Positions 6,904 to 63,965 of a DNA stretch of 64,000 nt are shown piece by piece. Both the position numbers and the translations under genes were made by a program. How positions within the stretch are numbered: the first letter of the stretch is position 1; each line of letters begins with the position of its first letter. Under the pieces are notes generated by a model that ran no database searches, was not told the origin of the DNA, and saw only the letters and a program-made list of their open reading frames with translations. The DNA is from Paludibacteraceae bacterium (lineage in GTDB: Bacteria; Bacteroidota; Bacteroidia; Bacteroidales; Paludibacteraceae). The stretch spans positions 38,268 through 102,267 of the forward strand of contig JAFOYE010000007.1 of NCBI GenBank assembly GCA_017391525.1, read 5' to 3'.

Positions 6904-6945
6904 TTGGCTATAGGACGCTTCGCTATAGGCTATAGGTTATAGGCG
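6904..6945. repeat. Low-complexity CTATAGG microrepeat
   Basis: Degenerate tandem copies of GGCTATAGG or GCTATAGG lie just after the stop of paralogue 2. The element resembles the GGCGATGAGG/GGCTATTGG strings found inside recG (25450), the FecCD permease gene (44482) and ddl (38755). Confidence 0.7.
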
Positions 6946-6954
6946 AGAATAAGT

Positions 6955-6990
6955 CAGCAAACTTCCAATGGAGGTTTGCTGATTTTAATA
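6955..6990 (+). terminator. Rho-independent terminator after paralogue 2
   Basis: The arms CAGCAAACTTCC (6955-6966) and GGAGGTTTGCTG (6970-6981) pair over 12 positions with one G-U, around an AAT loop. ATTTTAAT follows. This closes the two-gene unit 200-6881. Confidence 0.8.
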
Positions 6991-6997
6991 TTTGAGT

Positions 6998-7096
6998 GAG
7001 ACTGCTATGCATCAAAGCAGTAAATCTGTAAAACTCACGCGGGCGCGTGCGTGAATTTTTAAGAAACATCGCTTTGTTGCATAGTGTGTAAGTCTC
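6998..7096. repeat. Nested imperfect palindrome, about 99 bases
   Basis: Outer arms GAGACT (6998-7003) and AGTCTC (7091-7096). Middle arms CTATGCATCAAAGC (7005-7018) and GCTTTGTTGCATAG (7071-7084) pair at 13 of 14 positions. An inner GC-rich stem TCACGC/GCGTGA encloses the centre. It could fold as one long hairpin in DNA or RNA. Possible identities are a MITE-like remnant, a REP-like element or a structured RNA. Confidence 0.6.
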
Positions 7097-7111
7097 CTAA
7101 TTTCTTCGCTC

Positions 7112-7213
7112 CATTCGTCTCATTCGCCGTTAGTGTTGTTACTTGTAACGGCTAATTAAGCTAATTATGCTAATTAACGTATGATTTGTTTAATTCGTCT
7201 TATTCGCCGTTTA
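7112..7213. repeat. ATTCGTCT/ATTCGCCGTT and GCTAATTA microrepeats
   Basis: ATTCGTCTCATTCGCCGTTA near 7113 recurs as AATTCGTCTTATTCGCCGTT near 7192. Between them sit three copies of GCTAATTA or TTAATTA-like units (7151-7179). No coding potential is evident. Same style as the other low-complexity strings in the window. Confidence 0.6.
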
Positions 7214-7223
7214 GAATAAATCA

Positions 7224-7276
7224 TTTTGTTGTGGGTTGCCAATGCGCTTAAGCGCATTCTTCCAACCCAAACAAAA
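7224..7276. repeat. Long hairpin around a perfect 18-base palindrome
   Basis: The centre AATGCGCTTAAGCGCATT (7241-7258) is a perfect palindrome. It is enclosed by GGGTTG (7233-7238) against CAACCC (7263-7268) and TTTTGTT against AACAAAA. The total stem is about 22 base pairs with small bulges. No T-run of terminator type follows. Function unknown. Confidence 0.65.
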
Positions 7277-7353
7277 CACATTCTCGAATTGTCTTTAAAA
7301 GTTTATCCCTGTGTTGCTATCGAAAAAGTAGACACTTAAGGTAGAAAAAAAAC

Positions 7354-7421
7354 AGAAATTTGGAACAAAAATGGCGTAAAATTTGGAATGAAAATCCAAA
7401 AAAAAGCGTAATATTTGGAAT
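7354..7421 (+). repeat. Three direct repeats of the TTTGGAA type upstream of the ATPase promoter
   Basis: Copies lie at 7354-7366 (AGAAATTTGGAAC), 7374-7389 (GCGTAAAATTTGGAAT) and 7406-7421 (GCGTAATATTTGGAAT). The TTTGGAA cores are 23 and 32 bases apart. A related copy, GCGCAAAATTTAGAAC, lies just after the gene at 8758-8773. The arrangement suggests binding sites for a regulator or for the ATPase itself. Confidence 0.6.
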
Positions 7422-7435
7422 TATTCTATAAAAAA

Positions 7436-7467
7436 CTTGCACAAATAAAAAAAAAGCACTATCTTTG
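7436..7467 (+). promoter_or_regulatory. Bacteroidetes-type promoter of the first orphan ATPase
   Basis: CTTG at 7436-7439 as the -33 element, 20 bases, then TATCTTTG (7460-7467) as the -7 element. The expected start site lies around 7474, inside or next to the palindrome that abuts the start codon. Confidence 0.8.
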
Positions 7468-7473
7468 CACTCG

Positions 7474-7490
7474 AAATAATAGTATTATTT
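7474..7490 (+). promoter_or_regulatory. Perfect palindrome abutting the ATPase start codon
   Basis: AAATAATA (7474-7481), one G, TATTATTT (7483-7490). The ATG begins at 7491. The palindrome covers the expected transcription start and the whole short leader, a place suited to a repressor operator or a translational block. Confidence 0.6.
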
Positions 7491-8744: not shown

Positions 8745-8798
8745 GTACTACTTTTTTGCGCAAAATTTAGAACATTATTAGTTTATTGATACCATATT

Positions 8799-8831
8799 AG
8801 AGCATCTGCCTTACAAGCAGATGCTCTTTTC
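8799..8831 (+). terminator. Rho-independent terminator of the first ATPase
   Basis: AGAGCATCTGC (8799-8809) pairs perfectly with GCAGATGCTCT (8817-8827) around a 7-base loop. TTTTC follows. Confidence 0.85.
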
Positions 8832-16780: not shown

Positions 16781-19700
16781 ATGAAACGACCTTTATTACT
16801 TATCTTTGCACTCTTTGTAGCCGCATCGGCGTTTGCACTCAAAGTGTATATCAACCCTGGTCATGGTAGTTGGGGTCCTAATGACCGTCCTATGCCTACC
16901 GTGTCATGTCCTAATCTTTCTTCTACCGGAAGACCCGACACCATCGGTTTCTATGAGTCCAATACCAACCTCTGGAAAGGATTTGCCCTAGAGGAGAAAC
17001 TTCTAGCAGCAGGTTTTGGCGTAAAGATGTCACGTCGCGCTAGCGGTCCTTATCCATACACTAGTGCCAACGAAACATATAACAAAGCGCTGACTACCAT
17101 CTGTAGCGAGGCAGAGAACTATGGTGCAGACTACTTCATCTCTATCCACTCTAACGCCGGTCCTGAAGGCGAATTAGGCGGTGCCAGTGGTAAGTTTGCT
17201 AACTACCCTGTGATCCTCTGGCGTGGTTATACCGCTACCCCAGGTGTGACCAATAGTGATAAGATGGCCAAAGCATGTGCCGCTCGCCTATACGAGATAT
17301 TCTGGGCAACCCCTAAAACGCCTAGCGGCGGCGGTGGTCCAGAACCAACCACTTACTATTCCCCCAGTAACCCACGTATCTTAGGTGACTTGGATTTCTA
17401 TAACACAACTTCTACCTATGGTTACCTCGGCGCATTGAAGCACAATATCCCTGGTTATTTGTCTGAAGGTTATTTCCATACCTATAGTCCAGCACGCCAC
17501 CGTGCACTTAACCCTGACTGGTGCCGTCAAGAGGGTGTGCGTTACTACCGCGGAATCATGGATTACTACGGCAAAGCAGGTGAGAAAGTGGGATACATCA
17601 TGGGATACATCCGCTCTAAAACAGAGACATTTTCACATGCCAACTACATCCCTTACACCGGTTCCAACGACGAGTACAAACCTATCAATGGCGCACAAGT
17701 ATACCTCAAGAACGCTAGTGGCGACACCATCATGACTGATTGCTACCACTATGTGAAGCGTAAACGAACCAACCAGAAATACTACCTCACTGACAATAAC
17801 TACAATGGCGTATTCGTATACGACAACCTAACTCCAGGAACCTACACCATTAGCATCAAAGCAAATGGTTACCAGGAATATAATGGAACCCTAACCGTAA
17901 CCGCGGACAAGACTATCTATCCTGAGATCTTCCTCACACCAGGTTCGGGATCAACCGACCCTGACCCAGATCCAACTCCAGACCCAGATCCAAGTTTGCC
18001 AGCTGCGGCATCAGGATTGAACCCTTATGCCTATGGTTTGAGTGCGGAATTGGCAGAAGATAGTTCCACCATCAAAGTGAAATTCAACATCAACGCACTC
18101 GCTAGCACCGTCAAGGTAATCTTCAACGATGGTAAGAAAGACTATATAGCACGCAGTTACACCAACGTAAAAGCCGGTGGTTATAGCTCGGTGATCGCTA
18201 TCGACACTATGCCTAAGGGCAAGACTATGTCTTGGCGTGTGGATGTGACAGGAGCAGGATTCACTACTGCTACTAAAATAGGAACCGAGTACTACTTCTA
18301 CCACCCAACATCCGTGGATGTAGACCATAGTCCAGAGAGTCCACACTTTGGACGCATCTTGTGTAACGAAGCATACCACGAGATCAAAGGTAAGACTGGC
18401 ACCGGTTCGGCTGGCGACTACACTACCTATAAGAGCCAAGCACTGGGTGCAGGTATCTACGAGTTTAACCCTAAATTTGAATATGTAGGAGCTTACAACG
18501 GTGGCAATACATTTGCTACCTATCGCCTAGATAAAACCTCAAGCAAAGCCTTAGCTCCTCACCGTATCCGTATAGCCGATGATGGACGTATCTTTGTGAC
18601 ATCCTTCAACGGTGGTGCGTCTTGGGGCGGTAAGATCATGTGGGAGGTGAATCAAGACAACCTCAATACATGGAATCCAACCTTTGGATATAGCAAGGTG
18701 AGCAGCACATCAGAGTTGCAAACTTCATCTAGCGAGTATATAGCAGCACCTAACATAGGTTTTGATGTGCAAGGCGGTGGCGACAACCTGAAACTGCTGA
18801 TGATGTCGGCTACGAGCGATTGCTACGACTACGTAGAGGGCGCTTTCCGCTGCTATGAGTACGCATGGGGAAAGAAGACCACATGGAACACCGCTGTACA
18901 AAAGAAATGGTTTGACGGCAATAAGTCTAACAACTGCAATGGCACCTTCAAAGTAATTAACTATACCGGAGCCAATGTGCAATTTGATAACCATGGCGGT
19001 ATCTGGGTTTGCCAATACCGTGCAAGTGCAACGGATACTTATCCATCGCTCATCTACTACGACAAGAACGGTGTATATCGTTTCCACGAAGTGATGAACA
19101 ACCGTGGTGGCGGTGGTATGCGATTTAATAAAGATTTCACCAAAGTGATTATCTCTGGCGGTAATGGTTCAACTGGCGAGGCAACCGTTTATAGCATCAG
19201 CAATGATGCCAATGGTTATCCTACTAAATTGACCAAATTATACACCATCGCTATGAACCTCGGAACTAGTATGTGCGACTACGCATGGGACTATGCAGAT
19301 AACGTATATGCTGTCAGCTACACCAAAGAGAAACTGGTGGCTTACGCTACACCTCACGATGCAGACAAGGTAGTTTCAACTCCTGCGATGAGTAAATACG
19401 GCTTTACCCTCACAGAAAAATACACCGTTACCGCTAGTGCCAACGACGCAACCATGGGTACTGTGAGTGGTGCTGGTGTATATGTGAAAGGTGCTAAGGC
19501 TACTTTAACCGCAACCGCGAACGAAGGATACCAGTTTGTTAACTGGACCATTAATGGCGAGACCATAACAACTAACCCAACCACCATAACCGTCAATAGC
19601 GATGTGAACGCTGTTGCTAATTTTGCAGTTATCCAACATACTGTTACCGCAACCGTTAATGACCCAGCCATGGGTAGTGTAGCAGGTGCAGGCGTATATA

Positions 19701-21271
19701 ACTATGGTACAACCGCTACTTTGACTGCAACTGCTAACGAAGGTTATGAGTTTGTTGGTTGGACAGTTAACGGCGAAACTTTGCTAGAAAACCCATTGAC
19801 TTTGATTGTTACAAGTGATGTGACCGTAGTGGCAAACTTTAAAGCAATTGAGCATACCGTTACCGCAACTGTTAATGACCCAGCCATGGGTAGTGTAGCA
19901 GGTGCAGGTGTATATAACTATGGTGCAACTGCTACCTTGACCGCTACTGCGAGCGAGGGTTATGAGTTTGTGGGTTGGACAGTCAATGACGAGACCTTAA
20001 CAGACAACCCATTATTGTTGACCGTCACAAGCGATGTGACTGTAGTGGCTACCTTCAAAGCAATTGAGCACACTATTACCGCAACCGTTAATGACCCAGC
20101 AATGGGAAGTGTAGAGGGCGCTGGTGTATATAACTATGGTGCAACTGCTACCTTGACCGCTACTGCGAGCGAGGGTTATGAGTTTGTATCTTGGACTATA
20201 GGCGAAAATACTGTAATAGACAACCCATTGACCTTGACTGTTACCGGTGATGTAACCGTAGTGGCTACCTTCAAAGCAATCGAGCACACCATTACCGCAA
20301 CCGTTAATGACCCAGCAATGGGAAGTGTAGAGGGCGCCGGTGTATACAACTATGGTGCAACCGCTACCTTGACCGCTACCGCTAACGAGGGTTATGAGTT
20401 TGTTGGATGGACCGTGGGCGAAAATACTGTAACAGACAACCCATTGACATTGACTGTTACAAGCGATGTAGCCGTAGTGGCTACCTTCAAAGCGATTGAG
20501 CATACCATTACCGCAACAGTTAATGATCCAACAATGGGTTCTGTAGAAGGCGCTGGTGTATATACCTATGGCGCAAGTGCCACTTTGACTGCAATCGCTC
20601 ACGAAGGTTATGAGTTTGTTGGTTGGACAGTCAATGACGAAACCTTAACAGACAACCCATTGACCTTGACTATTACAAGCGATGTAACCGTAGTAGCAAA
20701 CTTCAAAGCAATTGAGCACACCATTACCGCAACTGTGAATGATCCAACAATGGGTTCTGTAGAAGGCGCTGGTGTATATACCTATGGCGCAAGTGCCACT
20801 TTGACTGCAATCGCGAACGAAGGTTACGAGTTTGTAGGTTGGACAGTTGGCGAAAATACATTGACCGATAACCCATTGACCTTAACCGTCACAAGCGATG
20901 TGACTGTAGTGGCGAATTTCAAGGCGATTAACTATAATGTACTTGTAACCATCAACGACTCTACTATGGGTACTGTAGAAGGTGTAGGTGAATATGAACA
21001 AGGCGCTACAGCAACCTTGATCGCTAAGCCATATGTAGGCTATGAGTTGGTAAATTGGGAACTTGCTGGCGAAACATACATGATTAATCCACTTAGCTTC
21101 GTTGTAACGAGTGACATGACTGTCATGTTGACCTTCAAGTCTACGGTTGTTACAGACGTAGATAATGTAGTTACGAATGGAGTGAAGATAGAAAAACTCT
21201 TCCAAAACGGACAACTATATATTCGCCGTGATAAGGACGTGTTTACGGTGAGCGGTGCAAAATTGGAATAA
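16781..21271 (+). CDS. Secreted N-acetylmuramoyl-L-alanine amidase fused to propeller and eight InlB-type repeats
   Basis: 1,496 residues. Signal peptide 1-19. The Amidase_3-type zinc domain covers about 20-265, with ligands H28 (NPGHG), E59 (FYESN) and H123 (SIHSN), and catalytic E229 (SEGYFH). It should cleave the amide bond between MurNAc and L-Ala in peptidoglycan. A carboxypeptidase-regulatory-like beta domain lies near 300-385, then an Asp-Pro linker (393-405). Next comes the same LNPYAYGL-propeller unit found in the neighbouring paralogues (410-870). Eight 72-residue repeats follow (881-1456), then the shared tail (QNGQLYIRRDKDVFTVSG). Codon use is more GC-rich and uniform than in paralogue 4, suggesting high expression. 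The fusion links the propeller family to the cell wall or envelope. Confidence 0.88.
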   Translation: MKRPLLLIFALFVAASAFALKVYINPGHGSWGPNDRPMPTVSCPNLSSTGRPDTIGFYESNTNLWKGFALEEKLLAAGFGVKMSRRASGPYPYTSANETYNKALTTICSEAENYGADYFISIHSNAGPEGELGGASGKFANYPVILWRGYTATPGVTNSDKMAKACAARLYEIFWATPKTPSGGGGPEPTTYYSPSNPRILGDLDFYNTTSTYGYLGALKHNIPGYLSEGYFHTYSPARHRALNPDWCRQEGVRYYRGIMDYYGKAGEKVGYIMGYIRSKTETFSHANYIPYTGSNDEYKPINGAQVYLKNASGDTIMTDCYHYVKRKRTNQKYYLTDNNYNGVFVYDNLTPGTYTISIKANGYQEYNGTLTVTADKTIYPEIFLTPGSGSTDPDPDPTPDPDPSLPAAASGLNPYAYGLSAELAEDSSTIKVKFNINALASTVKVIFNDGKKDYIARSYTNVKAGGYSSVIAIDTMPKGKTMSWRVDVTGAGFTTATKIGTEYYFYHPTSVDVDHSPESPHFGRILCNEAYHEIKGKTGTGSAGDYTTYKSQALGAGIYEFNPKFEYVGAYNGGNTFATYRLDKTSSKALAPHRIRIADDGRIFVTSFNGGASWGGKIMWEVNQDNLNTWNPTFGYSKVSSTSELQTSSSEYIAAPNIGFDVQGGGDNLKLLMMSATSDCYDYVEGAFRCYEYAWGKKTTWNTAVQKKWFDGNKSNNCNGTFKVINYTGANVQFDNHGGIWVCQYRASATDTYPSLIYYDKNGVYRFHEVMNNRGGGGMRFNKDFTKVIISGGNGSTGEATVYSISNDANGYPTKLTKLYTIAMNLGTSMCDYAWDYADNVYAVSYTKEKLVAYATPHDADKVVSTPAMSKYGFTLTEKYTVTASANDATMGTVSGAGVYVKGAKATLTATANEGYQFVNWTINGETITTNPTTITVNSDVNAVANFAVIQHTVTATVNDPAMGSVAGAGVYNYGTTATLTATANEGYEFVGWTVNGETLLENPLTLIVTSDVTVVANFKAIEHTVTATVNDPAMGSVAGAGVYNYGATATLTATASEGYEFVGWTVNDETLTDNPLLLTVTSDVTVVATFKAIEHTITATVNDPAMGSVEGAGVYNYGATATLTATASEGYEFVSWTIGENTVIDNPLTLTVTGDVTVVATFKAIEHTITATVNDPAMGSVEGAGVYNYGATATLTATANEGYEFVGWTVGENTVTDNPLTLTVTSDVAVVATFKAIEHTITATVNDPTMGSVEGAGVYTYGASATLTAIAHEGYEFVGWTVNDETLTDNPLTLTITSDVTVVANFKAIEHTITATVNDPTMGSVEGAGVYTYGASATLTAIANEGYEFVGWTVGENTLTDNPLTLTVTSDVTVVANFKAINYNVLVTINDSTMGTVEGVGEYEQGATATLIAKPYVGYELVNWELAGETYMINPLSFVVTSDMTVMLTFKSTVVTDVDNVVTNGVKIEKLFQNGQLYIRRDKDVFTVSGAKLE
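19421..21148 (+). repeat. Eight tandem 216-base repeats coding InlB-type (PF18998-like) units
   Basis: Unit borders fall every 216 bases exactly (19421, 19637, 19853 and so on), each coding 72 residues with the pattern GAGVY, ATLTA, EGYEFVGW, DNPLTLTV. Units 2-7 are close to identical. Units 1 and 8 are diverged, as expected for array ends. The segment after GW alternates between NDETLTDN-like and GENTVTDN-like versions, indicating shuffling among units. Confidence 0.95.
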
Positions 21272-24329: not shown

Positions 24330-24394
24330 GAATAGTGCGCTTATTGTGCGTGTATTGTGCGTGAATAGTGCGTGAATAGTGCGTAATTTTTAAG
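24330..24394. repeat. GAATAGTGCGT microrepeat
   Basis: Five degenerate copies of (A/T)(A/T)TAGTGCGTG or TATTGTGCGTG lie between the OMP gene and recG, ending at the recG stop. The same string, shorter, occurs at 41256-41302 before clpB, ending in AATTTACAAGAG against AATTTTTAAGAG here. Confidence 0.7.
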
Positions 24395-26510
24395 AGATTT
24401 CTCCCCAATTACCAGCAGCGATTCGAAGATAGTCGAGTCGCTGTTTGTATATACGGTTGTGCATCTCCTCTAATAGTGGATCTGCATCTAATATATCTAG
24501 GGCTGCTTGACGTGCCAATTCTAGCAATTGGCTATCAGTGGATAAACTTGCAATATGCAATTCAAATGGTAATCCTGATTGTTGTGTGCCTTCTAAATCT
24601 CCAGGACCACGTAACTGCAAGTCTGCTTCTGCAATGCGGAAACCATCATTGGTAGCTACCATGATATCCATGCGCTTGCGGGTGTCTTTGCTCTGCTCCA
24701 CATTGGTAAGCAAAATACAATAGCTTTGTTCCGCACCACGACCTACGCGACCACGCAATTGATGCAACTGACTCAAACCAAAACGTTCTGCATTCTCTAT
24801 GATCATCACACTCGCATTGGGCACATTCACACCTACTTCTATTACCGTTGTGGCTACTAGTATCTGTGTCTCACCGCTAGCAAAACGACGCATCTGCTCG
24901 TCCTTGTCCTTGGCACGCATCTGACCATGTACCATGGATATGCGATAATTGGGGAAGGTTTGACAGAGTTGATTGTAGCCATTCTGCAAATCTTGTAGCT
25001 CCATCTTCTCGTTCTCTTTGATCAATGGATATACTACATACACCTGTCGGCCTAACCCTATCTGTTGCTCGATAAACTGATTGATCGATGTTCTTCTGGT
25101 ATTCACATAGTGCAATGTCTGCACGGGTTTTCTACCTGGGGGTAATTCGTCTATAATACTCACCTGCAAGTCACCGTACACTGTCATCGCTAGTGTACGT
25201 GGAATAGGTGTAGCTGTCATAACAAGGATATGGGGTGGACGACTATTCTTGTTCCATAGTTTGGCACGCTGTGCGACACCAAAACGATGTTGCTCGTCAA
25301 TGATACAAAGGCCTAGATTAGCAAACTGTACAGAGTCTTCTATCAAAGCGTGGGTGCCGATAAGAAGATTAATCTCACCATTTAGAAGTTGCTCATGGAG
25401 CGGTTGGCGCTGTTTGGCTGTTGTAGAACCGGTGAGTAGGGCTACTTTGGGCGATGAGGCGATGAGGCTATTAGGCGATGAGGCGAGAGGCGATAGCATC
25501 TTGCAGATACTATCATAGTGCTGGTTGGCCAAGATCTCCGTTGGAGCCATGATGCACACTTGGTAGCCGTTGTCAATAGCCAAGAGAGCCGTGAGTAAGG
25601 CTACCATCGTTTTACCACTACCTACATCTCCTTGTAGAAGACGGTTCATCTGTTTGCCAGACTTGATATCCGCTTGTATCTCACGCACAACACGTTTTTG
25701 CGCATTAGTGAGGTCAAATGGTAGGCAAGTCTTGTAGAAAGTGTTAAAATATTTGCCTACAATTGGCATTGTGAATCCCTCGTTTTGTTCGCGGCGCTTC
25801 ATTTGACGCAGAATCTGCATCTGGATATAGAATAACTCCTCAAACTTCAAACGCTCTCTTGCACGCTGCATAGCGGTAGAGTCTATGGGGAAATGAATAT
25901 TGATAAGTGCCTCGTTTAAACCCATGAGATGGTATCTCTCCACAATATCCATTCCTAGCGTGTCTGGTAAACTCTGCTGGCGGAGATGAGGTATGAGCTG
26001 TGCGACAATAGTACGTATAGCTTTGGAGTTCATACCCGCACGTTTCATACCTTCTGTGGTATTATAGTGCGGTTCTAATCCCTTGGTCATTTCTGGCTGC
26101 ACTTTGCTCATAGGGGTGAGCTCTGGGTGCACGAAGTTGTATTGATGGTTGAAGCGTGATGGCTTGCCAAAGAGCAGGTACTTCACATTCCGCTCTAGCT
26201 TAACATACTTAATACCCTTGAACCATACAAGCTCAACGGTATGTCTGCCGTCAGTAAAAGTAGCGCAAAGTCGTTGCGCTGCACCGGCTCCAACTGTGTG
26301 CCACTCGGTGATATGACCGATAATCTGCACATAGGTATCCTCATCCTCAATCTCGTGGATATAGTAGAAGCGGCTGCGGTCTATATACTTGTACGGAAAC
26401 TGGTACAACATATCTAGAGCCGACTTTACGCCTAGCTCTTTACGAAGAATGTCGGCACGCTTTGTGCCGACACCCTTACAGTATTCTATATTTTGAATGG
26501 ATAGATCCAT
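24390..26510 (-). CDS. recG: ATP-dependent DNA helicase RecG
   Basis: 706 residues, usual length for RecG. The N-terminal wedge/OB domain (about 60-160) binds branched DNA. The SF2 helicase core carries Walker A GDVGSGKT, the DEQH box (IIDEQHRFG), MTATPIPRTLAMTVYGDL, and motif VI-like QLRGRVGR with the RecG C-terminal segment (DLQLRGPGDLEGTQQSG). It reverses stalled replication forks and migrates Holliday junctions. Residues 339-353 (SPLASSPNSLIASSP region) are extra compared with E. coli RecG as I recall it. They are encoded by a low-complexity repeat at 25450-25496, and the frame stays open. It is transcribed towards the OMP gene. A microrepeat hairpin separates it from tonB. Confidence 0.95.
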   Translation of the reverse strand: MDLSIQNIEYCKGVGTKRADILRKELGVKSALDMLYQFPYKYIDRSRFYYIHEIEDEDTYVQIIGHITEWHTVGAGAAQRLCATFTDGRHTVELVWFKGIKYVKLERNVKYLLFGKPSRFNHQYNFVHPELTPMSKVQPEMTKGLEPHYNTTEGMKRAGMNSKAIRTIVAQLIPHLRQQSLPDTLGMDIVERYHLMGLNEALINIHFPIDSTAMQRARERLKFEELFYIQMQILRQMKRREQNEGFTMPIVGKYFNTFYKTCLPFDLTNAQKRVVREIQADIKSGKQMNRLLQGDVGSGKTMVALLTALLAIDNGYQVCIMAPTEILANQHYDSICKMLSPLASSPNSLIASSPKVALLTGSTTAKQRQPLHEQLLNGEINLLIGTHALIEDSVQFANLGLCIIDEQHRFGVAQRAKLWNKNSRPPHILVMTATPIPRTLAMTVYGDLQVSIIDELPPGRKPVQTLHYVNTRRTSINQFIEQQIGLGRQVYVVYPLIKENEKMELQDLQNGYNQLCQTFPNYRISMVHGQMRAKDKDEQMRRFASGETQILVATTVIEVGVNVPNASVMIIENAERFGLSQLHQLRGRVGRGAEQSYCILLTNVEQSKDTRKRMDIMVATNDGFRIAEADLQLRGPGDLEGTQQSGLPFELHIASLSTDSQLLELARQAALDILDADPLLEEMHNRIYKQRLDYLRIAAGNWGEIS
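25450..25496. repeat. In-frame GGCGATGAGG microrepeat inside recG
   Basis: Four to five degenerate units of GGCGATGAG or GGCTATTAG. They encode Ala-Ser-Ser-Pro-rich residues between two conserved helicase segments. The unit resembles repeats at 6904, 38338 and 44482. Confidence 0.8.
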
Positions 26511-38217: not shown

Positions 38218-39229
38218 CTTCAATGATTTCACTCAGCACCTGACCAATATTCAATCCTGCGGCACGCACTTGTTGTGGGATAAAGGATGTGGCGGTCATA
38301 CCCGGTGTGGTATTCACCTCTAGGAGGTTGATCTCTAGCCTTTCGCCTTTCGCCTCATCGCCTGTCAATATATAATCTACACGGATGATGCCCTTGCAGC
38401 CCAAGATGTCGTATATCTTCAATGTCATGGCTTGCACTGCATCGCGTACTTCGTCGGGGATACGGGCAGGGGTAATCTCGTCCACCTGACCATTGTACTT
38501 GGCGTCGTAATCAAAGAACTCGTTGCTTGTCACTACTTCGGTAATAGGGAAAGCGACAGCTTTGTTTTTGGTCTTGTAGGCACCGCAAGTGATCTCAATA
38601 CCCTTCATAAATGCCTCGCAAATCACCTCATCGCCTTCGGCGAATGCTTTCTTGATGGCGGGTTCCACTTCCTCCAATGTCTTCACCTTAGTCACTCCAA
38701 AAGAGGAACCGCCTACGTTGGTTTTGATAAAACATGGTAATCCCACTATATTGAGGATATCGGATATTGGATGTTGGCTATTGGATTTGCGCAGCAAAAC
38801 GCTCTCCGCCACTTTGACGCCAAAGCCTTTCAGGTAGTGATTGCAAGTGTACTTGTTGAAAGTCATGGCAGCTGCCAATACGCCGCAACAAGAGTATGGG
38901 AGACCAATCATGTCTAGGTAGCCTTGCAACACACCGTTCTCGCCGGGTGTACCGTGAATAGTGATGTACGCGAAGTCAAAACTGTGTTTAACGCCGTTGT
39001 AGGTGTACGAAAAGTCATTCTTATCGATCTTTGCCCACTCATCTTGATTCTTGGCTCCTGGTTCTTGGTTCTTTATCTGGGCTTTCCAGTCGTTACCTCG
39101 TAGGAGAACGATGGTAGTGGTGTATTGTTTTTGGTCGGCTAAGAAAGACTCTATGCCCGCTGCGCTACGCAGCGATACCTCGTATTCGGAGCTATCTCCT
39201 CCTGCTATGATGGCTATATTTCGTTTCAT
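38198..39229 (-). CDS. ddl: D-alanine--D-alanine ligase
   Basis: 343 residues from ATG 39229 (MKRNIAIIAGGDSSEYEVS). ATP-grasp enzyme joining two D-Ala for peptidoglycan. Motifs: AGGDSSEYEVS, HGTPGENG, NKYTCNHYL, IKTNVGGSSFGV, CEAFMKG, IIRVDYIL and LLEVNTTPGMT. Three in-frame low-complexity strings lie in variable loops: residues 51-63 (KNQEPGAKNQ), 147-158 (KSNSQHPISDI) and 289-297 (GDEAKGERL). Its own promoter precedes it (39256-39287). A microrepeat encodes the C-terminus. Confidence 0.95.
   Translation of the reverse strand: MKRNIAIIAGGDSSEYEVSLRSAAGIESFLADQKQYTTTIVLLRGNDWKAQIKNQEPGAKNQDEWAKIDKNDFSYTYNGVKHSFDFAYITIHGTPGENGVLQGYLDMIGLPYSCCGVLAAAMTFNKYTCNHYLKGFGVKVAESVLLRKSNSQHPISDILNIVGLPCFIKTNVGGSSFGVTKVKTLEEVEPAIKKAFAEGDEVICEAFMKGIEITCGAYKTKNKAVAFPITEVVTSNEFFDYDAKYNGQVDEITPARIPDEVRDAVQAMTLKIYDILGCKGIIRVDYILTGDEAKGERLEINLLEVNTTPGMTATSFIPQQVRAAGLNIGQVLSEIIEDQLLNY
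38338..38364. repeat. In-frame GGCGAAA/GGCGATGA microrepeat in ddl
   Basis: Coding-strand units GGCGATGAGGCGAAAGGCG encode DEAKGER between a conserved strand and the EVNTTPG motif. Same unit type as in recG. Confidence 0.7.
38755..38791. repeat. In-frame GGATATTGG/GGCTATTGG microrepeat in ddl
   Basis: Plus-strand copies GGATATCGG, GGATATTGG, GGATGTTGG and GGCTATTGG encode the SNSQHPISDI segment in a loop before GLPCFIKTN. Confidence 0.75.
39042..39080. repeat. In-frame TCTTGGTTCTTGG microrepeat in ddl
   Basis: Plus-strand copies CTTGATT, CTTGGCTC, CTGGTT, CTTGGTT encode KNQEPGAKNQ, a hydrophilic insert after the first Rossmann-like strands. Confidence 0.75.
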
Positions 39230-39731: not shown

Positions 39732-39741
39732 CGGCAAAATT

Positions 39742-39823
39742 AACTTTCAAAAGTAAAATATTGCACTAAAAATTTACTTTTCAAAGTTAAAAACATTGCA
39801 TATTATTGATATTGAAAAGTAAA
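39742..39823 (+). promoter_or_regulatory. Three AAAAGTAAA operator-like motifs before the second ATPase
   Basis: AACTTTCAAAAGTAAA (39742-39757) and TTTACTTTTCAAAGTT (39773-39788) form an inverted repeat with one mismatch. TTGAAAAGTAAA (39812-39823) is a third copy touching the start codon region. They lie between the promoter and the ATG, as expected of an autoregulatory operator. Confidence 0.65.
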
Positions 39824-39826
39824 AAC

Positions 39827-41026: not shown

Positions 41027-41079
41027 TGCCAGATATTCTACAAAGTTCCCTGCGGGTTTCGGGAGCATCATAGGAGATC

Positions 41080-41103
41080 TGTGGGAGATCTATGGGCTTT
41101 CGG
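41080..41103. repeat. GGAGATCT direct repeat
   Basis: GGAGATCTGTG and GGAGATCTATG in tandem, 12 bases apart, in the gap between the ATPase and clpB. A degenerate inverted CCCTT/AAGGG motif near 41141-41170 shares 14 bases with 13030-13043. Confidence 0.5.
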
Positions 41104-41255
41104 TGGTTATTAGGTTTCTAGTTTTCAGTTTTTGTTTTTGCCGAAGGGATACCGAACCCTTGCCGAAGAGGCGCTTGAATACGAGCATTTCAACCTTCAC
41201 CTAACAGGAGGGAATCCTTGTCAAACCAATACAAAGCAATGATTATATTTATGGA

Positions 41256-41302
41256 GATATAGTGCGCTTATTGTCCGTGAATAGTGCGTAATTTACAAGA
41301 GA
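41256..41302. repeat. ATAGTGCGC/ATAGTGCGT microrepeat before clpB
   Basis: A shorter relative of the string at 24330-24394, with the same order of units and the same AATTT..AAGAG end. The two copies lie beside unrelated genes. Confidence 0.65.
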
Positions 41303-41363: not shown

Positions 41364-41401
41364 TACGGGGTTTGGTATGAGATTTGTCTATCACCTAATA
41401 A

Positions 41402-41441
41402 CGACCTTAAAGTCCTTAATGACCTTAATGTCCTTAACTTT
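41402..41441. repeat. CCTTAATGA/CCTTAATGT microrepeat in the clpB leader
   Basis: Four units ACCTTAAAGT, CCTTAATG, ACCTTAATGT, CCTTAAC just before the clpB start codon. Another low-complexity string at a gene boundary. Confidence 0.65.
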
Positions 41442-43672: not shown

Positions 43673-44655
43673 AGTACAATCCACAGGATGATAGGAGCGC
43701 CAAATAAGGCACTCATCGTGGAGATAGGAAGCGCATATGTGCTGAGGTTGCAGAGAATGTCGCAGATAAGTAAGATATTGGCTCCGATGAGTGCAGAAGC
43801 AGGAATAGTTAGGCGATGGTTGCTAGTGGTAAGAATACCTCGTGCGATATGTGGTACGGCTACGCCGATGAAGGCAATAGGTCCGCAGAATGCTGTCACA
43901 CTACCAGCCAAAAGACAGGATGCCAACACCAGCATCCAACGGGTGCGTTCTACATTAATTCCCAAACCACGGGCATAGTCCTCTCCCAAGAGCAGACCAT
44001 TGAGTGGTTTGATGAGCATAAGTACGAGGATTGCGGCTATCGCAATACCGATGATGAGCGTAGGTAGTTCGTCCCAACTGACACTGTTGAGCGATCCTAA
44101 TGTCCAGACAATAAAAAGTTTAAGTGAATCTGGATTGGCGAAGTTTTGAATCATATTCACCAATGCGCCAGCTATATTGCCCACCATCATACCTACGATT
44201 AGCAGTGTGATATTGCTGCGGATACGCTTGGCAATGAGCATAACTAGAAGCATTGTTATGAGACAACCAATTATCGCAGAACCACTGATGAGTCCGCTAC
44301 TACTGATTGCTACACCACACATTGTGAGTAGTGCAACTCCTAGGCTTGCACCCGAAGATACACCTAAGATGTAGGGACCGGCTAGAGGATTGCGAAAGAG
44401 CGTTTGCATCATCAATCCCGCTACCGAAAGTGAAGCTCCTGCTAGTATTGCCGTCAGCATCTTTGGTAAACGGATGTGGATGAGGATATTGGCTATTGGC
44501 GATGGGCTATCGGCGATGCTCGAAAGGTCCTCGGAAAACAAGGCGAAGAGACTATCGGGCAAAATCCAATAGGCCGAACCACAGCAGAGATCCAACAGAG
44601 CCACGACCACTAGTAAGAGAGTGAGTCCAACGAATATAAAGGTGTTCTTTTGCAT
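43663..44655 (-). CDS. FecCD/BtuC-type ABC transporter permease
   Basis: 330 residues, about 9-10 membrane segments. Signature IRLPKMLTAILAGASLSVAGLMMQTLFRNPLAGPYILGVSSGASLG, VWTLGSLNSVSWDEL and the C-terminal CGPIAFIGVAVPHIARG, all typical of siderophore, haem or cobalamin importers. The matching ATPase and binding protein are not adjacent. Residues 46-57 (SIADSPSPIANI) are encoded by a low-complexity repeat (44482-44520), just before the conserved IRLP motif. The -7 element lies only 8 bases from the ATG, so the message could be leaderless. Confidence 0.9.
   Translation of the reverse strand: MQKNTFIFVGLTLLLVVVALLDLCCGSAYWILPDSLFALFSEDLSSIADSPSPIANILIHIRLPKMLTAILAGASLSVAGLMMQTLFRNPLAGPYILGVSSGASLGVALLTMCGVAISSSGLISGSAIIGCLITMLLVMLIAKRIRSNITLLIVGMMVGNIAGALVNMIQNFANPDSLKLFIVWTLGSLNSVSWDELPTLIIGIAIAAILVLMLIKPLNGLLLGEDYARGLGINVERTRWMLVLASCLLAGSVTAFCGPIAFIGVAVPHIARGILTTSNHRLTIPASALIGANILLICDILCNLSTYALPISTMSALFGAPIILWIVLKK
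44482..44520. repeat. In-frame GGCTATTGGCGATGG microrepeat in the permease gene
   Basis: Plus-strand units GGATATTGG, GGCTATTGG, GGCGATGG, GGCTATCGG, GGCGATG encode ADSPSPIA-like residues in a periplasmic or N-terminal loop. Unit type shared with recG and ddl. Confidence 0.8.
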
Positions 44656-48259: not shown

Positions 48260-49020
48260 TGTACAACATCGCTGTCATATTAGCAGGAGGCATTGGAGCA
48301 CGCGTGGGAGGTAATACTCCTAAGCAACTGTTGCCGTTGCAAGATGGCAAGAGTGTGCTAGAGCACGCAGTAGATGCCTTCGAACAATCACCTCATATTC
48401 ACGAGATCTGCATTGTGATGCACCCCGACTATATCATGCATGCCGAGCAGATGCTTCTTGCCAACGCATGGCAAAAGGTCCGTCATATCATTCCTGGAGG
48501 AAAGGAGCGTTGGGAGTCGAGTGTACAGGCGATACGTGTGTATTACGGGTTGAACGTTGAAAGTTTAAAGTTTAAAGACGAGGAAAACAATTGCCAATTG
48601 CCAATTGTCAATTGCCCAAATACAATCAACCTGCTTTTGCACGACGCTGCGCGTCCGTTTGTGAGCCAAGAGATCATAGCTCGTGTATGTGAGGCATTAG
48701 AGGAACACGAGGCAGTGACGGTAGCTATCCCAAGCACCGACACCATCTATGAGATGGTGGATGGCAAGGTAGCGCGTATTCCACAACGCTCCACCATCAT
48801 GCGTGCCCAAACACCACAGGCTTTCCGCTTGGAGTTAATAGCGGAAGCATACGCCAAAGCCTTAGGCGTGGATAGTCTAACTGCAGAAGCATGCGCAGAG
48901 GCTCATCTCCCCGCCACGGATGATTGTGGTATTGTACATGAGCACATGCCAAATACCCCAATCTACATCGTTGAGGGCGAAGAACAAAACAAAAAGATAA
49001 CATTCAAAGAAGATATATGA
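48259..49020 (+). CDS. IspD/TarI-family cytidylyltransferase
   Basis: 253 residues. Nucleotidyltransferase with LAGGIGARVGGNTPKQLLPL at the N-terminus, IPGGKERWESSVQAI, LLHDAARPFVS, and RAQTPQAFRLELI near the C-terminus. It transfers CMP from CTP, either to methylerythritol phosphate (IspD, isoprenoids) or to ribitol phosphate (TarI). The HDAARPF form and the position directly before a TagD-like fusion and a CDP-glycerol transferase make a polymer role plausible. Residues about 97-120 are an insert encoded by microrepeats. It overlaps the next gene by ATGA. Confidence 0.85.
   Translation: MYNIAVILAGGIGARVGGNTPKQLLPLQDGKSVLEHAVDAFEQSPHIHEICIVMHPDYIMHAEQMLLANAWQKVRHIIPGGKERWESSVQAIRVYYGLNVESLKFKDEENNCQLPIVNCPNTINLLLHDAARPFVSQEIIARVCEALEEHEAVTVAIPSTDTIYEMVDGKVARIPQRSTIMRAQTPQAFRLELIAEAYAKALGVDSLTAEACAEAHLPATDDCGIVHEHMPNTPIYIVEGEEQNKKITFKEDI
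48549..48617. repeat. In-frame GTTTAAAGTTTAAAG and CAATTGC microrepeats in the ispD-like gene
   Basis: Two families in a row: TTGAACGTTGAAAGTTTAAA-type units, then four AATTGCC/AATTGTC units. They encode about 24 hydrophilic residues between GGKERWESSVQAI and LLLHDAARPF, two segments that are close together in the family. Confidence 0.85.
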
Positions 49021-61340: not shown

Positions 61341-61372
61341 AATCTTTATTATTTTATTGCTTTGCGATTAAA

Positions 61373-61466
61373 TGAGTTCAAAATTGTTCAGTAGCGTTCC
61401 GCGCTGTTCAGTATTGTTTCCATGAAATACAATGTTGAACCATATTGAACTATATTGAACAAATTT
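61373..61466. repeat. GTTCAGTATTGTT hairpin repeat, copy 1 (rnfE/rnfA gap)
   Basis: TTGTTCAGTAGCG and GCGCTGTTCAGTATTGTTTC, then GAAATACAATGTTGAAC and TATTGAAC units. The two halves are partly complementary. Homologous to 62802-62910. Confidence 0.8.
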
Positions 61467-61484
61467 AGCCGCTCTGCGGTAATG

Positions 61485-62075
61485 TTATTTTTTAAGCAGT
61501 TTCTGTATCAAAGCCATCAAGTAGCCGAGTACGATAAACGCACCAGGAGCCAATACGAAGATAAGCATGCCATACTCCTCGCCGTAGACTCTTGAACCAA
61601 AGAGGCAACCACTACCAAGTAGCTCGCGTACTGCACCAATCAGGGTCAATGCTACACTAAAGCCCAAACCCATACCTAGACCGTCCAATGCAGACAAGCC
61701 TACAGAGTTCTTAGCTGCAAAAGCCTCAGCACGGCCAAGGACCACACAGTTTACCACAATCAGCGGAATAAACAAGCCTAACTCCTCATAAATAGGAGGC
61801 AGATAGGCTTGCATCAATAGTTGAACCATAGTTACAAAAGTAGCAATCACCACGATAAACGCAGGGATGCGCACTTTATCAGGAATCAAATTCTTCAAGA
61901 GTGAAATCACCACATTCGAGCAAATGAGCACAAAAGTGGTTGCCAAACCCATTGACATACCGTTGACAGCAGAAGTTGTTGTCGCTAGTGTAGGGCACAT
62001 ACCGAGTACTAGCACAAAAACTGGGTTCTCGCGCAAGATACCGTTTAATACTGTACTTAATGATTTATTTTTCAT
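61485..62075 (-). CDS. rnfE: Rnf complex subunit RnfE
   Basis: 196 residues from ATG 62075, six membrane segments. Conserved GMCPTLATTTSAVNG and NCVVLGRAEAFA resemble RnfA, its paralogue and partner. An in-frame start 10 codons upstream is rejected because ATG 62075 overlaps the rnfG stop as ATGA and has a GGAGG-type ribosome-binding site, rare in this genome window. Confidence 0.95.
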   Translation of the reverse strand: MKNKSLSTVLNGILRENPVFVLVLGMCPTLATTTSAVNGMSMGLATTFVLICSNVVISLLKNLIPDKVRIPAFIVVIATFVTMVQLLMQAYLPPIYEELGLFIPLIVVNCVVLGRAEAFAAKNSVGLSALDGLGMGLGFSVALTLIGAVRELLGSGCLFGSRVYGEEYGMLIFVLAPGAFIVLGYLMALIQKLLKK

Positions 62076-62785
62076 TGTTGACCTCCTTCCATTGCTTGTT
62101 GACAATATTTCTCAGCACATCCTCTGCCCGCACATTTCTCAGGATCATTGCCATTAGGGCATACAAACGTTGCTGATGTGCTCACTTCTGCTTCTTCAAT
62201 CAGCACAGGTTGCTGAGCAATAGCGTTGTATGCTTTTACCACTGCTTCAAGAAAAGCGCGAGAGGTGATTGTTGAAGCGGTGATGGCATCTACTTTTCCA
62301 CCATCCTTGCTTACTGTAAAGTCAGTTGTTGCAGGGCTTTTACCAATGATGTTTTGTCCTGGTTTATCAGCATTTTTGAACCATGTAGTCATTTGCGCTC
62401 CTAGACCTGGGGTCTCAGATTGTTCCAATACTTCATATTCTACTACATTGCCTTCATGATCAAAGCCTACCATTAACTTAAATTCACCACTAAAAGGCAT
62501 GTTCTTGTTACCTTTTGTGCTTGTTTCTACAGCGGTTCCTACCCACTTGTCGCCCACATAGGCTTTATGTAGAATCAAACCATCAATAGTATCAACCTCT
62601 GCAATTTTGATACCTTCTATTTGTGGTAATACTTTGGAGATGGCTGACTCTTGTTTTTCTTTTTTAGCATTGTCTATTGGCTCTTTGGTGAGAGAGTATA
62701 CACCTGCCAACGCTGCTGCTGCCACAACTGTAATACAAGTCAGTGAGAGCGCCATGTTCTTAAATGAACTTACTAATTTTGCCAT
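62072..62785 (-). CDS. rnfG: Rnf complex subunit RnfG
   Basis: 237 residues. N-terminal membrane anchor (LTCITVVAAAALAGVYSL), then the FMN-binding domain with ETPGLGAQMTTWF and the flavinylation site VDAITASTITSRAF, where a Thr carries covalent FMN in the family. The C-terminus has an unusual Cys cluster, CPNGNDPEKCAGRGCAEKYC, after the normal domain. Translation is coupled to rnfE by ATGA overlap. Confidence 0.95.
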   Translation of the reverse strand: MAKLVSSFKNMALSLTCITVVAAAALAGVYSLTKEPIDNAKKEKQESAISKVLPQIEGIKIAEVDTIDGLILHKAYVGDKWVGTAVETSTKGNKNMPFSGEFKLMVGFDHEGNVVEYEVLEQSETPGLGAQMTTWFKNADKPGQNIIGKSPATTDFTVSKDGGKVDAITASTITSRAFLEAVVKAYNAIAQQPVLIEEAEVSTSATFVCPNGNDPEKCAGRGCAEKYCQQAMEGGQQ

Positions 62786-62801
62786 AGTTGTATTCTATTA
62801 A

Positions 62802-62910
62802 ACGTTCAAAGTTGTTCAGTATTGTTCAGTAGCGCTTTGCGCTGTTCAGTGTTGTTTCTGGGAAATACAATGTTGAACTATTTAGAACCACATTGAACAA
62901 TGTTGAACTA
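62802..62910. repeat. GTTCAGTATTGTT hairpin repeat, copy 2 (rnfD/rnfG gap)
   Basis: Same order of units as 61373-61466: TTGTTCAGT, AGCGCTTTGCGCTGTTCAGT, GAAATACAATGTTGAAC, then ACATTGAACAATGTTGAAC. It contains GTTCAAC-type inverted arms. Confidence 0.8.
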
Positions 62911-62917
62911 CACTTTT

Positions 62918-63925
62918 TTATTTCTTCTTTTCGCCAAAGCGTTTTGGACGAATCAAGTTCAACAATGGAACGCATGCGTTCATAATTAGGATAGCAAACG
63001 ACATACCCTCTGGGTACGCACCCCATGTACGAATCACCATTACAATCACACCGATGCCTACACCGAATAGTAGCTTTCCGCAGTTGCTCATAGGTGAGGT
63101 TACGTAGTCGGTTGCCATAAACCATGCACCGAGCATCATACCACCTGTGCAGAGGGTAGTCAATACGTAACTGCTAGTGCATAGACCTTCTGGCAATGCA
63201 CCTGCCCAACCTGTTGCTGCAGCAAACAAGGCTACTGTCGCCATGATACTCACTGGAATATGCCAAGTGATGACGCGTGTAATGATCAAGAAGATACCAC
63301 CTGCTAATAGCAACAATGCACTCACTTCACCTAAACTACCACCCATCCATCCTAAGATCATGTCCCAGGTGTCGCTGGCGCTGATAGGCAAGGAACTTAC
63401 TGCTTCTGCATCGCCACCTAAAGCGGCTTTCAATGCTGCTAATGGAGTAGCAGCTGTGGTTGCGTCGACATATGCTGTGTCAAAACCATTAGGTTCTGGC
63501 CATGAGGTCATTTGGACTGGGAATGAGATAAGCAGGAATACACGGCCTACTAACGCAGGGTTGAATAGGTTTTGTCCTAGTCCTCCGAAACTCATCTTCG
63601 CTACTCCGATAGCTACCAACGCGCCGATTACTACTATCCACCAAGGCAAGTTACTTGGCAAGTTGAACGCGAGGAGTAAACCTGTCAGTACGGCTGAAAG
63701 GTCGCAGATGGTCGATTTTTGTTTTAAGATAAATTTCGCAATCAGCCACTCAAATAGCACGCAGGCTACTACACTGATTGCTGTGGTGATGAGTGCACCC
63801 ATACCGAATGCCAAGATACTTACTGCGTAAGCTGGTAGTAGGGCAATGATCACCAATAACATATTTTTCCGCACGCTATCACCGCTATGGAAGTGTGGTG
63901 CGGGAGATACTATAAATTGTTTCAT
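62918..63925 (-). CDS. rnfD: Rnf complex subunit RnfD
   Basis: 335 residues, about nine to ten membrane segments. Starts MKQFIVSPAPHFHSGDSV; FGGLGQNLFNPALVGRVFL and the FMN-attachment Thr in DATTAATPLAAL are visible, as is FMATDYVTSPMS near the C-terminus. It forms, with RnfE, RnfA and RnfG, the membrane arm of the ion-pumping complex. Preceded by rnfC across a short microrepeat. Confidence 0.96.
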   Translation of the reverse strand: MKQFIVSPAPHFHSGDSVRKNMLLVIIALLPAYAVSILAFGMGALITTAISVVACVLFEWLIAKFILKQKSTICDLSAVLTGLLLAFNLPSNLPWWIVVIGALVAIGVAKMSFGGLGQNLFNPALVGRVFLLISFPVQMTSWPEPNGFDTAYVDATTAATPLAALKAALGGDAEAVSSLPISASDTWDMILGWMGGSLGEVSALLLLAGGIFLIITRVITWHIPVSIMATVALFAAATGWAGALPEGLCTSSYVLTTLCTGGMMLGAWFMATDYVTSPMSNCGKLLFGVGIGVIVMVIRTWGAYPEGMSFAILIMNACVPLLNLIRPKRFGEKKK

Positions 63926-63931
63926 TTATTC

Positions 63932-63965
63932 TAGCCTTTAAACTTTAAACTCTAAACTTTCAACT
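63932..63965. repeat. CTTTAAACTTTAAACT microrepeat (rnfC/rnfD gap)
   Basis: Three to four units of CTTTAAA, CTCTAAA and CTTTCAA. It touches the rnfC stop. Related to the GTTTAAAG units in the ispD-like gene. Confidence 0.7.

What the first reader, a model, noticed from the sequence alone, without database searches (positions are those of the whole stretch)
6904..63965. A class of short, self-similar low-complexity repeats scattered at gene boundaries and inside genes
About 15 strings of 25-110 bases are built of degenerate 7-14 base units. Families: GGCGATGAGG/GGCTATTGG; ATAGTGCGTG; TTGAAAGT/TTTAAAC; CAATTGCC; CCTTAATG; AGTTCAGGAG; GTTCAGTATTG. Related units recur in unlinked places (for example 24330 and 41256; 25450, 38338 and 44482; 48549 and 63932). 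They look like products of one generating process rather than random simple repeats. Rickettsia palindromic elements are a known parallel for repeats inside genes, but these are tandem, not one long palindrome.
Basis: partly seen in the sequence, partly recalled or inferred. Interest (0 to 1): 0.8.

Follow-up and report, generated by a model that had tools for sequence, protein, structure and literature searches.

The report
Swapped short tandem repeats in genes
A gut bacterium and its relatives carry many short, sloppy DNA repeats between and inside genes, and the same few spots hold different repeats in different species; repeats of this kind are known, but their exchange at fixed spots inside essential genes is unusual.

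Summary
In 464 kb of the window's genome (by its relatives a Paludibacteraceae MAG, Bacteroidales) there are 118 degenerate tandem arrays (units 5-24 nt; 7 and 11 nt commonest) against 1.3 expected. Most are intergenic, but some lie in frame in recG, ispD, ddl and a fecCD gene.

Within one genome, arrays of the same period share words (0.301 vs 0.171 between genomes; 0 of 1000 permutations). Arrays of different period do not, so "one generating process" is not shown.

Orthologous loops hold different families in different species: the ispD loop has arrays in 8 of 23 resolved genomes, of seven or eight kinds. Two genomes about 92% identical carry different arrays at several shared in-gene sites. 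In recG the swap comes with flanks that match another lineage, so short-tract recombination explains at least that one.

Best reading: replication-born minisatellites of the known heptamer class, copied within genomes, tolerated in loops and gaps, and exchanged as alleles between species. Tests for RVT_1, Y1 transposase and mutS1 loss gave no support to those causes. Novelty: new variant of a known kind.

The parts
6904..6944 (+). GGCAATT/GGCTATA heptamer array, intergenic; part of a composite element that recurs in the genome
7151..7177 (+). GCTAATTAA 9-mer array, intergenic
24330..24384 (+). ATAGTGCGTGA 11-mer array just beyond the recG stop; L015 has the same family here, L014, L016 and L021 other families
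25450..25494 (-). GGCGATGA 8-mer array in frame inside recG (loop SPLASSPNSLIASSP); other families at this loop in L016, L020, L045, L047
38187..38214 (-). AGTTCAGG 8/16-mer array overlapping the 3' end of ddl
38338..38360 (-). GGCGAAA heptamer array in frame in ddl, loop 3; AATGGAC in G002/G004, GGTTACC-like in G035
38755..38786 (-). GGATATT heptamer array in frame in ddl, loop 2; GGATATC in G025, GGCGAAA-like in G014 (the latter by eye, below the score cut)
39042..39073 (-). TCTTGGT heptamer array in frame in ddl, loop 1; no other array among 30 loci by the score cut
41256..41288 (+). ATAGTGCGTG 11-mer array, intergenic, same family as 24330
41399..41438 (+). CCTTAATGT 9-mer array at the start of a ClpA/B-like AAA ORF (possibly 5' of the true start)
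44482..44518 (-). GGCTATT/GGCGATG array in frame in a fecCD permease gene; G025 has a CCCTCCC..GGAGGGG element at the same loop
48223..48259 (+). TTGAAAGTC(AAA) 7/14-mer array across the junction of a HAD gene end and the ispD start
48549..48577 (+). GTTGAAA/GTTTAAA heptamer array in frame in ispD
48588..48616 (+). CAATTGC heptamer array in frame in the same ispD loop
61383..61460 (+). GTTCAGTATT / TTGAACCATA 10-mer arrays, intergenic
62812..62912 (+). GTTCAGTATT / TTGAACAATG 10-mer arrays, intergenic
63936..63965 (+). CTTTAAA heptamer array, intergenic, related to 48549

Best explanation
These are minisatellites with units mostly of 7 to 16 bases, of the class known from cyanobacteria, Xanthomonas, Beggiatoaceae and other bacteria as heptameric SSR / STRR / LSSR repeats. 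Inferred: units arise and grow by slipped or template-switching synthesis during replication or repair. Shown: each genome has its own set of related units; some array stretches have exact copies at separate places; arrays survive between genes and in a few loops of conserved proteins. Shown at one site (recG of L047) and only indicated at a second (the M28 peptidase gene): the near flanks of the new array are those of another lineage, so a short-tract recombination replaced one array by another. Inferred: the same slots are shared by the species of the genus, so recombination between relatives swaps arrays slot by slot while the site stays occupied. No molecular function is needed. Effects on the protein loop or the mRNA end are possible but not shown.
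For: Excess over Markov-5: 118 vs 1.3. Same-period words shared within a genome 0.301 vs 0.171 between genomes, 0 of 1000 permutations. Exact 32-nt copies at separate places (flanks). Growth in a close pair: L045 holds 40 bases more of the same 10-mer family than L019 at one site. Placement: 65 of 91 arrays mostly outside ORFs in a sample that is 90.7% ORF. The ispD loop: 8 of 23 resolved genomes have arrays, 0.00 expected by shuffling; recG loop: 6 of 37 loci, 0.08 expected. Genomes G065 and G066, about 92% identical in aligned parts, have different arrays at the same in-gene sites. The TTGAATT pattern has 23 hits in G065 and 190 in G066. In recG of L047, the two 30-nt windows covering -120 to -60 are 0.93 and 0.97 like L045 but 0.70 and 0.80 like L020, and the window +30 to +60 is 0.87 like L045 and 0.70 like L020, while windows further out are mostly 0.9-1.0 like L020. 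At nine swapped sites flank identity rises from 0.833 (5-25 bp) to 0.927 (200-400 bp); at eight kept sites it goes from 0.953 to 0.923. No RVT_1 match in G000, G014 or G011; no Y1_Tnp match in G014 or G011; mutS1 present in 30 of 31 genomes searched.
Against: In recG the window -60 to -30 is 0.93 like L020 as well as like L016, so the tract is not unbroken in the windows. At the M28 peptidase site of L047 the left flank is identical to L020 from about 75 to 15 bp before the array, so an exchange there was very short or confined to the array; four near SNPs agree with L016 but others do not. Five sites with an array only in G066 show the same dip of the near flank (0.848 at 5-25 bp, 0.929 at 200-400 bp), so weakly constrained loops, or alignment error next to arrays, may make much of it. 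No donor with both the right flank and the right array was seen. The start of a new family at a new slot was not observed. The swap counts are small, some were judged by eye, and part of the sites were chosen because G066 has TTGAATT there.
Confidence: 0.55

Rival explanations
1. Array-only overwriting: an existing array is itself the target. A stalled or broken end in an array switches template to any other array in the genome, copies some units and returns, so that the slot stays and its content changes.
For: Flanks hardly changed close to the array at the M28 site of L047 and at L227:1968; at the M28 site of L019 and L045, where L045 has a degenerate array by eye, the right flank is identical over the first 50 bases; exact copies of array stretches at separate loci; many more TTGAATT hits in G066 than in G065.
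Against: In recG the flank changed too, and swapped sites on average have less identical near flanks. Adjacent arrays are no commoner than random intergenic placement gives, though half-overwritten arrays would be expected.
Confidence: 0.25
2. Independent loss and gain: strong insertion pressure and few tolerated loops, so that different repeats hit the same loops by chance of tolerance; no exchange between alleles.
For: A second kind of element (CCCTCCC..GGGAGGG) sits in the same ispD, ddl and fecCD loops in other genomes. The more distant species mostly have short loops without arrays.
Against: In the few close-pair sites not chosen for content, intergenic arrays were kept in 7 of 11 cases and never swapped, in-gene ones kept in 1 of 6 (two of these calls by eye), so general turnover does not seem fast enough; recG shows an exchanged tract.
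Confidence: 0.15
3. Regulatory sites, for example protein- or RNA-binding repeats near gene ends, as proposed for TAACTGA repeats.
For: Intergenic arrays lie near gene ends more than random intergenic placement: within 20 bp of 3' ends 16 of 63 against 9.7%, of 5' ends 14 of 58 against 9.0%.
Against: Sequence at a site is often not conserved between species, arrays occur inside conserved enzyme genes, and no shared words link the periods.
Confidence: 0.04
4. Enzyme-driven spread by a reverse transcriptase (telomerase-like or DGR) or a REP-associated transposase.
For: Tandem, degenerate, genome-specific units would fit a templated synthesis. G018, also array-rich, has one RVT_1 and one Y1_Tnp match.
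Against: RVT_1: no match in G000, G014, G011. Y1_Tnp: none in G014 and G011, one in G000 just over the cut-off (25.6 bits, cut-off 23). G014 and G011 are 98% complete. The array-rich G025, G026, G035, G065 and G066 were not searched.
Confidence: 0.03

Closest known systems
Heptameric SSRs GGGNATC of Xanthomonas and Nostoc (Rehm et al. 2015, PMC4692102; start of the abstract and passages seen)
   Same: Degenerate heptamer arrays, few units, genome-wide, over-represented in non-coding DNA near gene ends; same gene gaps but length and sequence variation between related species.
   Different: There one G-rich family with G-quadruplex potential; here many families and periods, several inside conserved genes, different families at one slot.
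TAACTGA direct repeats of Beggiatoaceae, cyanobacteria and some Bacteroidetes (MacGregor 2015, PMC4679880; abstract and three sections seen)
   Same: Heptamer direct repeats, partly in Bacteroidetes, mostly intergenic, some within ORFs.
   Different: One exact unit, mostly just upstream of start codons; a regulatory role was proposed.
STRR of heterocystous cyanobacteria and LSSR of Mrazek et al. 2007 (known here only through the papers above and from recall)
   Same: 5-11 nt units, heptamers commonest, slippage proposed.
   Different: Slot swapping and allele exchange were not seen described in what was read.
Rickettsia palindromic elements (Ogata et al. 2000, seen through passages of Delihas 2007, PMC2229807)
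   Same: Short repeats in frame inside conserved protein genes, tolerated, also between genes.
   Different: RPEs are single 105-146 bp palindromes; these are tandem arrays of short units of many families.
Minisatellite within a MITE of Porphyromonas gingivalis (PMC4596501; search listing only)
   Same: Tandem repeats dispersed in a Bacteroidales genome.
   Different: Carried by a MITE; no inverted ends were looked for here.

Membership tests
Heptameric SSR / STRR / LSSR class | tandem units of about 5-11 nt with heptamers commonest | tested here: met
   G000: 29 of 91 arrays (periods 6-16) are 7-mers, 18 are 11-mers
Heptameric SSR / STRR / LSSR class | more than chance, dispersed over the genome, mostly non-coding | tested here: met
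Heptameric SSR / STRR / LSSR class | copy number changes by slippage | tested here: inconclusive
   one clear expansion L019 to L045 and unit-wise gaps in G065/G066; no strain-level data
Rickettsia palindromic elements | one long palindrome (105-146 bp) per insertion | tested here: not met
   arrays are direct tandem repeats
Rickettsia palindromic elements | in-frame insertions in conserved protein genes | tested here: met
   recG, ispD, ddl, fecCD
RT-templated repeats (DGR, telomerase-like) | a reverse transcriptase in the genome | tested here: not met
   no RVT_1 match in G000, G014, G011; one in G018
REP elements moved by RAYT | a Y1 (RAYT) transposase | tested here: not met
   none in G014, G011; one match just over the cut-off in G000
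MITE-borne minisatellite | terminal inverted repeats and target-site duplication | not tested
   no search for inverted ends was run

The most novel reading that the evidence does not exclude
A genus-wide, exchangeable repeat system: a fixed set of slots in the loops of essential proteins stays occupied, but the repeat in each slot is overwritten again and again, by alleles from other species or from other arrays in the genome, so that each genome drifts towards its own dialect. In-gene slots turn over faster than intergenic ones.
Probability: 0.35. Interest if true: 0.75.

Novelty: new variant of a known kind. Interest (0 to 1): 0.6.

Why it matters
Why heptamer-type repeats exist in bacteria is an old open question; Rehm et al. 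wrote in 2015 that no detailed literature on heptameric repeats was available (passage). Here is a genus with many sequenced species in which close pairs show different arrays at the same slots. That makes birth, growth, spread and replacement of such repeats directly testable, and gives a record of very short recombination tracts between gut species. It also suggests that enzymes such as RecG, IspD and Ddl tolerate quickly changing peptide inserts in defined loops.

Tried and rejected
A common 'head' motif (a G-K-Y-N-A start followed by a tail of variable length) that I thought I saw across periods was tested by 5-mer sharing between periods and not supported. An AGTT preference of heptamers over the Bacteroidota loci (24 of 85 deduplicated units, in 23 of 46 genomes, 5.1 expected) is inflated by related genomes and by the nature of repeat words; I do not build on it. 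Excess adjacency of arrays: 9, 8 and 6 adjacent pairs in G000, G065 and G066 against 7.5, 5.6 and 8.3 by random intergenic placement; no excess. Stop-free orientation of in-gene arrays (51 of 71 informative units) is partly true by construction, because an array with stops ends the ORF; not used. Loss of mismatch repair: mutS1 is present in 30 of 31 genomes, missing only in the 54% complete G018. RT and RAYT: see rivals. The reversed control for the TTGACAG pattern is invalid, because the reversed word is the same ring of letters.

Rows dropped or judged by eye; the sites were chosen by hand (nine swapped, eight kept, five only in G066). L228:1497 was called 'same' by the script, because a 7-mer and half of a 14-mer fell within the cut, and was counted by me as swapped; L308:5913 was called 'different' and counted by me as the same family; left out were L228:1551, L228:1686, L222:1542, L247:2141, L296:8019, L302:14128, L308:157, 746 and 5364, and the codon-period repeats. 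In-gene swap counts in the close pairs leave out codon-period repeats (L047:9436, and two in L019/L045) and take the query side only; the M28 site of L019/L045 is swapped by eye (the script saw no array in L045). Of the 30 TTGAATT loci, 17 had an aligned stretch in G065, several of them overlapping; ten were analysed. In one search arrays within 150 bp of a stretch end were left out (113 kept). The printed list was cut; its totals were not, and each site pair can count in both directions.

Literature: ten searches. None of the listed titles or abstract starts is about slot-wise swapping of such arrays; the library lacks most subscription papers. Short-patch double illegitimate recombination was considered from recall; in the search for it no listed paper holds the phrase.
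Full report
What was checked. A scan for degenerate tandem segments found period 7 commonest and at most 0.1 per period in Markov-3 controls. The window lies in a 1.9 Mb genome of 41 contigs. The RecG relatives of highest identity are Paludibacteraceae and other Bacteroidales MAGs, largely from herbivore guts; the window's own name is not told, so its family is inferred from them.

How common. I took 20 stretches of 20 kb in addition to the window, 464 kb in all. They hold 118 arrays of period 5-24 against 1.3 in a Markov-5 control; periods 7 (29), 11 (18) and 9 (12) lead. The pattern GGCGATGAGGCGATGAGG with up to 3 mismatches gives 84 hits and 0 reversed-control hits in the whole genome. Of 60 relatives only G014 (117), G025 (78) and G011 (37) are comparably rich in this word. 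Seven sampled genomes of the genus hold 13.5 to 34.0 arrays per 100 kb, with other words in front. More distant Bacteroidota loci hold 52 arrays in 832 kb, 6.3 per 100 kb.

Dialects. With 239 arrays of seven genomes, pairs of the same period share a 5-mer in 0.301 of cases within a genome and 0.171 between genomes (0 of 1000 label permutations as large). For different periods the values are 0.166 and 0.155 (114 of 1000). So the words of one period are related within a genome, but there is no sign of one grammar for all periods. Exact copies exist: a 32-nt 11-mer stretch at L098:11427 and L102:1949, on different contigs, and a 32-nt stretch of mixed heptamers at L106:21, L106:5247 and L107:16577, about 5 and 31 kb apart on one contig. 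In the printed flanks the first pair has no likeness outside, while the second belongs to a composite element that reaches some 20 bases further left. In a blastn comparison 36% of the intergenic bases of the G000 sample match another intergenic segment of the sample, 2.2% in the reversed control.

Placement. Of 91 arrays (periods 6-16) 65 lie mostly outside ORFs and 23 inside, with 90.7% of the sample in ORFs of a simple caller. Intergenic arrays lie within 20 bp of a 3' end in 16 of 63 cases (9.7% for random intergenic places) and of a 5' end in 14 of 58 (9.0%). Inside genes they sit in frame in conserved enzymes: RecG and D-Ala-D-Ala ligase, IspD and a FecCD permease.

Same slot, different repeat. 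In RecG the loop between LANQHY and LLTGST holds GCCTCATC arrays in the window, L014 and L015, CCAATCG in L016, CAACTGT in L020, AATTCAA in L047, CTACACAACT in L045, and none in most others (by the score cut 6 of 37 loci, the window not among the 37, 0.08 expected). In IspD, 8 of 23 resolved genomes have an array (7 of 30 unresolved), with the units CAATTGC (and GTTGAAA), CTTACAC, GGTTAGA, GGCGATGA, TCTTCAAA, CCAATCA/CCAATGA, GATGAGTATAG and GGTGAAA; shuffled loops give 0.00 (sequences). GGTTAGA and GGTGAAA may be counted as one broad kind. Ddl loop 3 has arrays in 4 of 30 loci, loop 2 in 2 of 30, loop 1 in 1 of 30. Over the RecG region, 727 ordered array/ortholog-site pairs gave 121 same family, 178 another array, 428 none; the 'another array' class includes codon-period proline repeats and some misjudged relatives. 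Above 82% identity the same family prevails (30 same, 10 another, 14 none), so ordinary inheritance is part of the picture.

Close genomes. L020 (genome G065) and L047 (genome G066) are 94.1% identical over 8.4 kb and 92.8% over recG. At the M28 peptidase gene L020 has TTGACAG and L047 TTGAATT; in RecG L020 has CAACTGT, the TTGACAG ring read on the other strand, and L047 has AATTCAA, the TTGAATT ring read on the other strand. L023, 85.5% identical to L020, has TTGACAG at the first site, so by parsimony the change fell on the L047 branch. Pattern hits for TTGAATT are 23 in G065 and 190 in G066; TTGACAG is common in both (81 and 118), so it was not wiped out. In stretches not chosen for a site, together with L047 and L019/L045, six in-gene arrays of non-codon period gave 3 swapped (one by eye), 1 kept, 2 in one genome only; eleven intergenic arrays gave 7 kept (one by eye, called different by the script), 0 swapped, 4 in one genome only. 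Ten loci were chosen because G066 has TTGAATT there. Eight of their central sites lie in ORFs: six have another array in G065 (CACCAGACTA, CAACTGT in recG again, TGTTGTGTAG, ACCAGGAGTCAAGA by eye, TCGGGAG, AGGCGATG) and two have none by the script; one central site outside ORFs has none, and one lay outside the aligned part. These are small numbers and the second set is biased by its choice.

How the swap happens. In RecG of L047 the windows from -120 to -60 bp are 0.93 and 0.97 like L045 (0.83 and 1.00 like L016) but 0.70 and 0.80 like L020; the window +30 to +60 is 0.87 like L045 and L019, 0.70 like L020; the window -60 to -30 does not tell them apart; windows further out are mostly 0.9-1.0 like L020. 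This fits a recombination tract of up to about 180 bp from another lineage. At the M28 site the left flank is identical to L020 from about 75 to 15 bp before the array; four near SNPs agree with L016 but others do not, so the tract is short or only the array changed. Over nine swapped sites flank identity rises from 0.833 to 0.927 with distance, against 0.953 to 0.923 at eight kept sites, but five sites with an array only in G066 show the same dip, 0.848 to 0.929 (sites chosen by hand). Weak constraint in loops or alignment error can thus make much of the dip.

What it is not, as far as tested. No RVT_1 reverse transcriptase match in G000, G014 or G011 and no Y1 transposase match in G014 or G011, one just over the cut-off in G000; G018 has one of each; G025, G026, G035, G065 and G066 were not searched. 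mutS1 is present. The arrays are not palindromic elements. A function at gene ends cannot be excluded, but sequence at a site is often not conserved.

Known work. Heptamers are the commonest longer SSRs in most genomes surveyed by Mrazek et al. 2007 and slippage has been proposed (as told in PMC4679880 and PMC4692102). Rehm et al. saw GGGNATC arrays in the same gaps with length and sequence variation between two Xanthomonas species. MacGregor saw TAACTGA repeats, some within ORFs, and suggested a role in rearrangement in some Bacteroidetes. RPEs are single palindromes in frame in conserved genes. I therefore file this as a new variant: many families, in-gene slots, and exchange between close species.

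Limits. The genomes of the genus are drafts, the named ones metagenome-assembled, one per species, so within-species change is not seen. ORFs come from a simple caller. Scores and cuts are mine. The step from a single well-supported exchange tract to a general rule is inference.

Noticed in passing
L157, L160, L190, L203, L208, L310 (loops of ispD, ddl, fecCD): A CCCTCCCT..GGGAGGG-like inverted-repeat element of about 30-40 nt sits in the same loops as the tandem arrays, in other species of the genus.
   Followed up: partly
window 19644-20913: 216-bp repeat, 5.9 copies, in the long ORF 16781-21271; looks like an ordinary protein-domain repeat, not of the array class.
   Followed up: no
window 39736-39828: 2.8 copies of a 32-35 bp repeat (AAAAGTAAAAACATTGCA) at the start of the AAA_14/DUF4143 ORF at 39806; looks like repeated operator or promoter sequence.
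   Followed up: no
window 41050-41125; L020 downstream of recG: An element of about 80 bp (GTTCCCT..GGAGATCTGTGG..GGCTTTCGGTGG) that recurs at an unrelated place in another species; parts of it also in L021 and L047.
   Followed up: no
window 6904-6944; L106:9, L106:5235, L107:16577: Composite element (CTATAGGACGC..TTCG..CTATAGG plus GGCTATA/GGCGAAA units); at the L106 and L107 places it stands before a hairpin that looks like a terminator.
   Followed up: partly
L096:18232, L098:10703, L098:11243, L099:17045, L099:17328, L100:1258, L112:11615: A 34-nt sequence with TACCTTTGCA (Bacteroidota promoter-like, recalled) repeated in two slightly different forms at several places in G000.
   Followed up: no
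period-7 units of all Bacteroidota loci: AGTT/AACT occurs in 24 of 85 deduplicated heptamer units, from 23 genomes, against 5.1 expected; partly due to related genomes.
   Followed up: partly
L018, L020, L021, L022, L023 recG loop: The VNCQLLTG codons are themselves nearly periodic by 7 (GTCAATT GCCAGCT.. in L018; GTCAACT GTCAACT ATTAACT in L021), so host codons may have seeded the CAACTGT array.
   Followed up: partly
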